From Plicaturopsis crispa FD-325 SS-3 (Eukaryota; Basidiomycota; Agaricomycetes; Amylocorticiales; Amylocorticiaceae), in assembly GCA_000827205.1 (NCBI GenBank), contig KN832562.1, forward strand, positions 373,277-437,276: a stretch of 64,000 nucleotides of DNA, given 5' to 3'. The notes beneath the pieces were generated by a model. It saw only the letters and a program-made list of their open reading frames with translations. It did not search any database and was not told the origin of the DNA. Shown one piece after another: positions 17,902 to 20,515 of this stretch; within the stretch, counting starts at the first letter, position 1; the number at the start of each line of letters is the position of its first letter. Made by a program: the position numbers and the translations under genes.

Positions 17902-17950
17902 ACTAGCTAGGACTGTCCTGGATCGTCACCCGTAGCTCGTAGGGAATCCC

Positions 17951-17960
17951 ATATTTATAT
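17951..17960 (-). promoter_or_regulatory. TATA box of sphingomyelinase copy B
   Basis: The minus strand reads ATATAAATAT about 50 bases upstream of the ATG. The identical element with the same flanks (CCATATATAAATATGGG) occurs before copy C at 19451-19442. Confidence 0.55.
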
Positions 17961-17961
17961 A

Positions 17962-18487
17962 TGGTGCGTTGAGTGCGTCTGCGGCAGGTTGGAACTTGGC
18001 GACGGGGAAGGTCCCGGTGTTCTAGGGAGAACGAGCAATGCCTGATGTATACGACAGCGACCCACGGTATTTATCACGTTGGTGGTCGTCTCGGCCATGG
18101 CGGACACCAGGGAAGGTCATGGTGGACACTGGCAGGGAAGGTCATGGCGAACACCAAGGAACGTGTCCCTGGCGCATGACAGGGCAACTTTGTGCACCAG
18201 GTCGAGTCCTAAAAAAGTGTATCCTTCAGTGTGTGGGTCCGAAGAGGAGGGGATGCGACTCGGACAAGCAACCAAAGCGACTCGGTGCGAGCCGTTCACG
18301 AATGTGGACCTCACGGCATCCGGGCATGGTGGATATGTGGTAGGTAATGTATAAGATACACGGCCGATACACTGCAGAGACAGACGAAAGACAGAAAAAA
18401 AGAGTCTGACGCAACAATGGAAAAGCGTCAACAGTGAACACATCTAAGTAAACCTCCTGCGAATCTTTCTTGCTCTTCCCGGTCTTT
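17962..18487. repeat. Duplicated block: histone H2A last-exon tail and 3' flank
   Basis: This stretch matches 19453-19960 in order and orientation. Shared segments include the H2A C-terminal coding tail (AACCTCCTGCGAATCTTTCT on the plus strand at 18451 and 19922), CACGAA(T/C)GTGGA, GTGTGTGGGTCC, GAGTCCTAAAA and GGCCGATACA. The copy next to functional H2A is the parent; here the tail is only a relic with a 4-base insertion at its stop. It now lies upstream of copy B and supplies its promoter region. Confidence 0.85.
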
Positions 18488-19392
18488 TCACCGTCGTGGT
18501 TTCGTTCGCATCCACCGTCGCGTCCGCGTTCGCATTCACCGCCGCGTTCACGCTCGCATTCCCCTCGTTCGTATTTACCGAGTCCGCAAAGTCGCAGCAG
18601 CAGATCGGCTTGGTACAGTCCGCCTCGCAGCCGGGCGTGTACTGCCTGTCGATGTGCGCGTCGCTGAAGTGGATCACCTGGAACGGCTCCCTGCTGCCGG
18701 AGGACGTAGGTGCCTTGCCAGATGACGTCGGTGCCTTGCCGCCGGAGGACGTAGGGGGCTTGCCAGAGAAGGACGCCTTGCCGCCAGAGGACGGTGGCGC
18801 CTTGCCAGAGGACGTACTTGGGATGGGAAGAGCGGGAGGAGAGCGCGCGGGGAGGGGCACAGAGAACGCAGGGAGGGGCACAGAGAACGCAGCCACCGCC
18901 GGCGCCTGACACAGCCCGAACACAGCATCGCAGAACTTCGTCGCTGTGTTCCCTGTGGCGTCGATCCCGCTCGTCCCCGTCGCCGAGATCCCGCGCAGCG
19001 CGTGCGCGAGGATGGGTCCTTGCTCCCGGCGCAGACGTCTGTGTCTTCCAGCTGTGTACGTAGATACGCATGAGCCAGGGGGTAGATACGCATATTAGAC
19101 GCGCATATTAGACGCGCATATTAGACGCGCATGAGCAAGGGGGGATAGACAAGTATGAGCTAGGGAGGATGGTAGAGGATCGGGAGAAACGTACCTTGAA
19201 ACCCTGGCACACCGCGACTATAGTGTCCACGAACGCGTCGTTCCCGAGATGCGCGAGCGCCTGCAGGGGGAGGAGGAGCGCGTGGCACGACGCGCAGTCT
19301 ACGGCGTTCTCGAGCGCGGACAGGAGGCTGCCCGCCGCTAGCCCCAAGAGTGAGGACGCGAAGAGGATTGGGACGACGGACCAGGAGCGCAT
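18488..19392 (-). pseudogene. Sphingomyelinase copy C, truncated and fused to an H2A tail
   Basis: The ATG at 19392, signal peptide (LFASSLLGLAAG), saposin domain (DCASCHALLLPLQALAH) and first phosphoesterase motif (FSDAHIDRQYT) match copies A and B. After NETTT the sequence switches at about 18488 to the histone H2A tail read in another frame and stops at 18444. The GD, GNH and GHSH motifs are all missing, so it cannot be an active hydrolase. Exon 2 also lacks 10 bases present in B just after DVCAG, which shifts the frame, and it has an extra 24 in-frame bases in the GISATG region. The linker has expanded into Ser/Gly/Lys/Ala/Pro repeats (SSGKAPTSSGGKAP-like) and the last part into Asn/Ala/Asp repeats. 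This is a host-gene relic made by duplication. Confidence 0.82.
19065..19140. repeat. Short tandem repeats in intron 1 of copy C
   Basis: ATTAGACGCGCAT is repeated three times head to tail with related units (AGATACGCATGAGCC) around it. Copy B intron 1 (17570-17650) has diverged versions of the same units, so the array predates the B/C split. Confidence 0.6.
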
Positions 19393-19441
19393 AGCTAGCT
19401 AGGAATCTGCTGCCAGTGTCTCGCGCGTAGGAGGGATTCCC

Positions 19442-19451
19442 ATATTTATAT
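19442..19451 (-). promoter_or_regulatory. TATA box of sphingomyelinase copy C
   Basis: ATATAAATAT on the minus strand, about 50 bases before the ATG at 19392, identical to the element upstream of copy B. Confidence 0.5.
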
Positions 19452-19918
19452 ATGGTGCGTTCTGCGGCAGGTTGGCGACGGGGAATTTGAAGATGTTCCA
19501 GGGAGAACGAGCAAGGCCTGATGTACTTATACACGAGCAAGGCCTAATGTATGCAAGAGCGACCCACGGTAGTATGCAGCAGCGACTCACGGTATTCCTG
19601 CCGACGATATCACGTTGGTGGTCGCCTCGGTCATGGTGGACACCAGGGAACGTGACAGGGCGACATTCACTCCCGATGTCGAGTCCTAAAATTGTGTGCA
19701 TACTTCTGTCAGTGTGTGGGTCCATGAGGAGAGGATGCGACAAAGAACCGAATCGTTCACGAACGTGGATCTCACAGCATCTGAACTTGTGCAGGAAGTA
19801 GCATGGTGGATAAGTGGAATATAATGTATAAGATACAAGGCCGATACAGAGACAGACGCAGACGAGACAGACAGAAGAAAAAAAGAGTCGCAACAACGAT
19901 AAGAAAGCAACAGCACAT

Positions 19919-20515
19919 CTAAACCTCCTGCGAATCTTTCTTGCCCTTCCCGGTCTTTGTGGGTAGCAGCTGTGTACGCGCGACGTGAGCATGAGTGGGT
20001 TGGAACGATGAGAGGAGGGGGCACGTACTGCGGGGTCGATGTTGGGTACGACACCACCTTGCGAGATGACGACGTCGCCGAGGAGCTTGCTCAGCCTGTA
20101 ATCACACGGTAAGCAACAGGCCACAGATACAAAGGTAACATAAAGACTCACTCCTCATCGTTACGGATGGCGAGCTGCAAGTGACGAGGCACGATACGGT
20201 GCTTCTTGTTGTCGCGGGCGGCATTACCAGCGAGCTCAAGGATCTCAGCCGCAAGGTATTCGAGCACCGCAGCCAGGTAAACTATTCATGTCATCATCAT
20301 CATCAGCATCGACGTCGAGTCACTTTATCGATGAAGCACGTACCTGGTGCACCTGCCCCGACACGCTGAGCGTAGTTGCCCTTCTTCAAGAGACGGTGGA
20401 TACGACCGACGGGGAACTGGAGCCCAGCCTTCGCCGAGCGCGATTGGGACTTGCCAGAGGCGTCGCCGCCGCTCGCCTTTCCAGACTTGGATTTTCCGCT
20501 GACTTTTCCAGACAT
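19919..20515 (-). CDS. Histone H2A
   Basis: Four exons, 20515-20344, 20281-20152, 20095-20029 and 19969-19919, give 139 residues. The core is unmistakable: [59 protein letters not shown] and [13 protein letters not shown]. The tail [16 protein letters not shown] ends in an SQE motif, the ATM/ATR-type site that lets fungal canonical H2A serve as H2A.X in DNA damage. The N-terminus is longer and richer in Ser/Gly/Lys than usual. It is paired head to head with H2B at 20827 and presumably co-regulated in S phase through the shared promoter. Part of its last exon and its 3' flank were copied to 18.0-18.5 kb. Confidence 0.96.

What the first reader, a model, noticed from the sequence alone, without database searches (positions are those of the whole stretch)
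17950..20000. Tandem duplication joined a sphingomyelinase gene to the histone H2A tail
The last exon tail and 3' flank of H2A (19453-19960) recur at 17962-18487. At about 18488 the copied H2A tail is joined directly to sphingomyelinase copy C after NETTT. The breakpoints are therefore inside two unrelated genes. The event left copy C as a chimera whose frame reads the H2A tail out of frame, and placed H2A flank upstream of copy B. Copy A has weaker traces of the same flank, so the array may have grown by repeated events at this place.
Basis: seen in the sequence. Interest (0 to 1): 0.75.

Follow-up and report, generated by a model that had tools for sequence, protein, structure and literature searches.

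The report
Broken enzyme copy ending in histone
In what looks like a mushroom-type fungus, a stretch running from the end of a histone gene into a neighbouring lipid-enzyme gene was copied head to tail, leaving one truncated enzyme copy that ends in histone DNA and shows signs of having stayed useful for a while before it broke.

Summary
On the minus strand, a segment from the last exon of an intact histone H2A gene through the spacer into an acid-sphingomyelinase (ASM) gene is present twice, head to tail (18492-19958 and about 17138-18487; best piece E 7e-111). One tandem duplication with breakpoints in H2A exon 4 and in an ASM exon explains the layout: intact H2A, truncated ASM copy C fused at 18488 to an H2A tail, complete copy B. 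The copies have diverged (B-C dS 0.42), which argues against an assembly slip.

Three corrections. (1) Copy A shares only the ASM-side part of the spacer, no detectable H2A tail. (2) Copy C has a 10-nt deletion in exon 2; with the splice sites of A and B its frame stops at 18674, before the junction. (3) C-lineage changes lean towards silent ones (15 of 30, 25-30% expected) and 5 of 6 indels keep frame, so C was probably under coding constraint for a time, or lost its 3' part late. It is a new member of a known kind: a partial, chimeric gene made by tandem duplication.

The parts
19919..20515 (-). Intact histone H2A gene, 4 exons (20515-20344, 20281-20152, 20095-20029, 19969-19919), ending in DSQEV
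   Evidence: Gene model with GT-AG introns; Pfam Histone_H2A_C and Histone
18492..19958 (-). H2A-side copy of the duplicated unit: H2A tail, spacer, ASM exon 1, intron 1, exon 2 up to NETTT
   Evidence: Self-blast; alignments
17138..18487 (-). Downstream copy of the duplicated unit; the ASM gene continues beyond it as the complete copy B
   Evidence: Self-blast; alignments
18484..18495 (-). Duplication junction: ASM sequence joined to H2A exon 4 sequence, with about 3 nt between them
   Evidence: Comparison of C, H2A, B and A (sequences, read by eye)
18444..18487 (-). Copied H2A tail: 38 of 39 nt (18487-18449) like 19958-19920, followed by what looks like a 4-nt insertion at the old stop codon (by eye; the aligner shows an 8-nt gap)
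18444..19392 (-). Truncated ASM copy C: exon 1 19392-19195, exon 2 from 19051; 10-nt deletion at about 19025; the frame of NETTT ends at 18444 in misread H2A tail; the simple spliced frame ends at 18674
14992..17901 (-). Complete ASM copy B, 17 exons, 626 aa
   Evidence: Gene model; matches Sphingomyelin phosphodiesterase 5fi9 at E 1.5e-63; Metallophos and ASMase_C
11501..14258 (-). Complete ASM copy A, 16 exons, 622 aa, older paralogue (510 of 620 aligned residues like B)
14259..14587 (-). 5' flank of copy A, homologous to the ASM-side part of the H2A-ASM spacer only
17902..17990 (-). TATA-box-like promoter core of B, matching that of C at 19393-19470 and, more weakly, of A at 14259-14340
   Evidence: by eye; promoter role inferred

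Best explanation
An ASM gene lay just downstream of H2A. It had already duplicated once (A and B). Later one tandem duplication of about 1.4 kb, from 11 nt into H2A exon 4 to a point just after the NETTT codons of ASM, copied H2A tail, spacer, promoter and the ASM 5' exons. The H2A-side copy became the truncated gene C, which has only the first metal-site motif and runs into H2A tail DNA in a shifted frame; the other copy stayed attached to the rest of ASM and is today's complete B. C kept a promoter-like core, a signal-peptide-like start and most of the saposin-like region, and its changes suggest it was under coding constraint for a time. A 10-nt deletion breaks its frame, so now it is probably a decaying gene. 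Shown: layout, junction, divergence, deletion. Inferred: single event, order of events, past constraint, present decay, promoter and signal peptide.
For: Head-to-tail repeat with the order expected from one event. B and C are closer to each other (dS 0.42, dN 0.09) than either is to A (dS 0.94 and 0.88), over 175 of 262 codon columns. A-B dS is similar on both sides of the breakpoint (0.94, bootstrap range 0.66-1.49; 0.72, range 0.58-0.89), so B is not visibly a mosaic. Changes on the C lineage: 15 silent, 15 not, against 25-30% silent expected (P 0.004 at 26%, 0.015 at 29.7%). Codons 0-150 alone: 9 and 7 (P 0.010-0.024). Five of 6 C-lineage exon indels are multiples of 3 (P 0.018), counting the linker block as one 114-nt event. 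Gap by gap between B and C it is 7 of 10 in exons and 6 of 34 in flank and intron (Fisher P 0.003). Ten-nt deletion.
Against: The in-frame count depends on grouping: gap by gap, 3 of 10 exon gaps are not multiples of 3, and two of the 7 that are (3 nt each) are insertions in B, since A lacks them too. Exon 1 alone gives no significant signal (4 silent, 5 not, P 0.19), nor do the last two of seven windows (6 silent, 8 not, P 0.13). Runs of sites hint weakly at exchange between copies (366 and 134 of 5000 shuffles reach the observed scores). No related species could be compared, so the ancestral state is not seen, and past constraint fits the two-step rival as well.
Confidence: 0.7

Rival explanations
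1. Two steps: the duplication first copied H2A tail, spacer and a whole ASM gene, and C later lost its 3' part by a deletion ending in the H2A tail copy. C was a normal enzyme gene for most of its life.
For: Explains why C-lineage changes look as constrained as those of B (15 silent and 15 not, against 17 and 14; Fisher P 0.80) without a function for a truncated protein.
Against: Needs an extra event and a deletion end inside the short H2A tail. The tail copy is well kept, which is not expected of mere spacer: at most 1 change in 38 positions has P 0.004 and 0.017 under two neutral rates, but 0.31 under a third, so this is weak.
Confidence: 0.22
2. C is still a working gene: it uses another acceptor (exon starting at 19022) that skips the lesion and makes a secreted saposin-like protein with a basic tail read from H2A DNA in a shifted frame.
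For: That AG is the only phase-0 acceptor found between 19194 and 18940 for the frame of NETTT, and the frame is then open through the junction into the tail. In-frame repeat expansions.
Against: It would drop one of the six cysteines shared by A and B (by eye). Other frames here are also long and open (293 and 148 codons), so openness is weak evidence. No transcript data.
Confidence: 0.1
3. Assembly artefact: collapsed or mis-joined haplotypes created the repeat.
For: Single sequence; reads not available.
Against: The copies differ by dS 0.42 and many indels, and B is complete beyond the breakpoint; no ambiguous bases.
Confidence: 0.03

Closest known systems
Chimeric and partial genes made by tandem duplication (Drosophila yakuba, PMC5460883; abstract and section list seen)
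   Same: A tandem duplication whose ends fall inside genes yields a new 5'/3' combination and shuffles regulatory sequence
   Different: Here the second partner gives only about 39 nt of histone coding DNA in a shifted frame, the copies are diverged, and the host looks like a fungus
Acid sphingomyelinase expansions in fungi (PMC13161914; 12 of 21 passages seen)
   Same: Several ASM genes in one fungal genome, with the ASMase_C domain; the passages name expansions in several Dikarya
   Different: The text has no occurrence of 'tandem' and the passages seen do not describe truncated or chimeric copies; they report the N-terminal saposin domain for Mortierellomycota and some Zoopago-, Glomero- and Mucoromycota, whereas A and B here show a saposin-like six-cysteine region
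Acid sphingomyelinase of solved structures (5fi9, 5i81; mammalian origin recalled)
   Same: B aligns over residues 37-561 of its 626, including the metal-site motifs
   Different: C stops before the second metal motif

Membership tests
Acid sphingomyelinase (SMPD1-like) | Calcineurin-like phosphoesterase and ASMase_C domains | tested here: met
   Copy B: PF00149 at 2.9e-9 and PF19272 at 2.7e-7, both above the curated cut-off. A was not scanned as a spliced protein; 510 of 620 aligned residues equal B
Acid sphingomyelinase (SMPD1-like) | Metal-site motifs DxH, GD, GNH, GH, HxH (motif list recalled) | tested here: met
   Seen by eye in A and B and aligned for B to 5fi9. C has only the first
Acid sphingomyelinase (SMPD1-like) | N-terminal saposin B domain with six cysteines (recalled) | tested here: inconclusive
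   Six cysteines in A and B, and B aligns with 5fi9 from residue 37; no Pfam SapB hit for B
Acid sphingomyelinase (SMPD1-like) | Sphingomyelinase activity | not testable with these tools
   Needs an enzyme assay
Partial or chimeric gene from tandem duplication | Two head-to-tail copies of one segment whose ends lie inside genes | tested here: met
Partial or chimeric gene from tandem duplication | Chimeric transcript or protein made | not testable with these tools
   No RNA data; the simple reading stops before the junction
Pseudogene | Frame-breaking lesion relative to intact paralogues | tested here: met
   10-nt deletion in C exon 2
Pseudogene | Neutral evolution since origin | tested here: inconclusive
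   C-lineage changes lean to silent ones overall (P 0.004-0.015), but not significantly in exon 1 alone (P 0.19) or in the last two windows (P 0.13)

The most novel reading that the evidence does not exclude
The truncated copy C was kept by selection after the duplication as a stand-alone secreted saposin-like protein without an enzyme core, with expanded Ser/Gly/Lys/Pro and Asn/Ala linkers and a basic C-terminal tail born from histone H2A coding DNA read in another frame, and was only lately broken, or is still made through another splice site.
Probability: 0.25. Interest if true: 0.55.

Novelty: new member of a known kind. Interest (0 to 1): 0.35.

Why it matters
It is a clean case in which both breakpoints of an old tandem duplication can be read to within a few bases inside two unrelated genes. 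If one event did it, the truncation marks the time of duplication, so later changes in the truncated copy test whether a gene fragment can stay useful before it dies. Comparing relatives would settle that directly. The kind of event is well known, so the interest is moderate.

Tried and rejected
Tried: own-genome search (no genome held). Pfam on five separate ORF pieces of the ASM copies found nothing; the spliced model of B then hit. A search for an H2A tail in the flank of copy A was negative. The B-only intron was compared with the window: besides itself only matches of 10-12 nt. Paper searches: 3 papers; 2; 33, 20 listed; 15, 10 listed; 93, 10 listed; 0 papers holding histone H2A, sphingomyelin phosphodiesterase, chimeric and tandem duplication together. 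Of these only PMC5460883 (outline) and PMC13161914 (passages) were opened. Related fungal genomes were not searched: by their descriptions the collections on offer hold viruses, phages, plasmids, E. coli, bacteria and archaea, and metagenome scans were capped at 0, so no collection scan was made.

Rejected: assembly error (divergence too large); repeated duplication at the H2A breakpoint (A shows no tail); the open frame of C as evidence of coding (other frames are open too).

Full report
What is there. The minus strand carries, in order, an intact histone H2A gene (20515-19919, 4 exons), a truncated acid-sphingomyelinase copy C (start codon 19392), a complete copy B (17901-14992, 17 exons) and a complete copy A (14258-11501, 16 exons). 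An H2B-like frame starts on the plus strand near 20830 (recognised by eye). B matches Sphingomyelin phosphodiesterase 5fi9 over its residues 37-561 with E 1.5e-63 and has the Metallophos and ASMase_C domains. The short introns and a DUF6535 protein at 38253 suggest a mushroom-forming basidiomycete; that taxon is my inference.

The repeat. Self-comparison gives 17375-18487 against 18862-19958 (E 7e-111), with further pieces in the ASM exons. The H2A tail copy agrees at 38 of 39 positions; the whole flank, tail included, at 386 of 526, and the flank below the stop codon at 366 of 415 in a gap-rich alignment. The junction lies just after NETTT: ASM sequence, about 3 nt of unclear origin, then H2A exon 4 from its 12th base. 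This is the layout that one tandem duplication gives: intact H2A, truncated ASM, H2A tail, complete ASM.

Copy A. Its flank matches the ASM-side part of the spacer (score 40 against the C flank and 29 against the B flank; maximum of 200 shuffles 17 each) but not the 150 nt that begin with the H2A tail (12, maximum 15) or with its copy (10, maximum 15). A-B homology at the 3' end stops near 11434/14929.

Order of events. Over 175 of 262 codon columns (gapped columns and those around the deletion dropped), dS is 0.94 for A-B, 0.88 for A-C and 0.42 for B-C. Sites where A alone differs number 95, against 31 for B and 30 for C; 14 sites with three different bases were set aside. B is not visibly a mosaic: A-B dS is 0.94 before and 0.72 after the breakpoint, with overlapping ranges.

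State of copy C. A 10-nt deletion in exon 2 shifts the frame. Spliced as A and B are, C gives 191 residues and stops at 18676-18674, before the junction. The frame with NETTT and the misread H2A tail is open from 19094 to 18447, but two other frames here are also long (293 and 148 codons), so openness alone means little. One other acceptor, with its exon starting at 19022, would reach that frame but would lose one of the six cysteines shared by A and B.

Was C constrained? Changes on the C lineage are 15 silent and 15 not, against 25-30% silent expected (P 0.004 at 26%, 0.015 at 29.7%); B has 17 and 14. The part after the deletion gives 11 and 10 (P 0.009), exon 1 alone 4 and 5 (P 0.19). Codons 0-150 give 9 and 7 (P 0.010-0.024), the rest 6 and 8 (P 0.13). 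Five of 6 exon indels on the C lineage keep frame when the linker block is counted as one (P 0.018); gap by gap against B it is 7 of 10 in exons and 6 of 34 outside (Fisher P 0.003). A run test gives weak hints of exchange between copies (366 and 134 of 5000 shuffles). In the one-event model the truncation is the duplication breakpoint, so constraint after the split would mean the truncated gene was useful; in the two-step rival the constraint belongs to a once complete C. These data do not settle which.

Conclusion. The finding is a genuine tandem duplication with both ends inside genes, which made a partial, chimeric gene copy. It is a known kind of event (PMC5460883, abstract and section list seen). 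ASM expansions in fungi are also known (PMC13161914, passages seen). What deserves follow-up is whether the truncated copy lived on as a gene.

Noticed in passing
17213-17283: Copy B has a 71-nt GT-AG intron that A and C lack at the same place: a gain in B or two losses; no source sequence in the window beyond 10-12 nt matches.
   Followed up: partly
16726-16732 and 13228-13234: A 7-nt microexon GAAACCA in the models of both A and B carries most of the catalytic GNH motif. [quoted passage not shown]
   Followed up: no
13457-13518: The model of copy A has a GC-AG intron (GCAAGT...GCTAG) where B has GT-AG.
   Followed up: no
19089-19132: Intron 1 of copy C holds 3.4 perfect copies of a 13-nt unit that contains CTAAT, like a branch point (recalled); B has one such stretch by eye.
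   Followed up: no
18503-18892: Copy C has tandem expansions (units of 21, 24 and 42 nt) in its linkers, in the frame of NETTT, that A and B lack.
   Followed up: partly
17284-17901 and 13649-14258: A and B show a saposin-like six-cysteine region, while passages of PMC13161914 report N-terminal SapB for early-diverging fungal lineages.
   Followed up: no
38253-40805 and 47745-48596: A DUF6535 protein (Pfam E 2.6e-41) and, by eye, a second similar one.
   Followed up: no
50067-51251: A 394-codon open frame made of degenerate repeats such as RVFDNAHA; not examined further.
   Followed up: no
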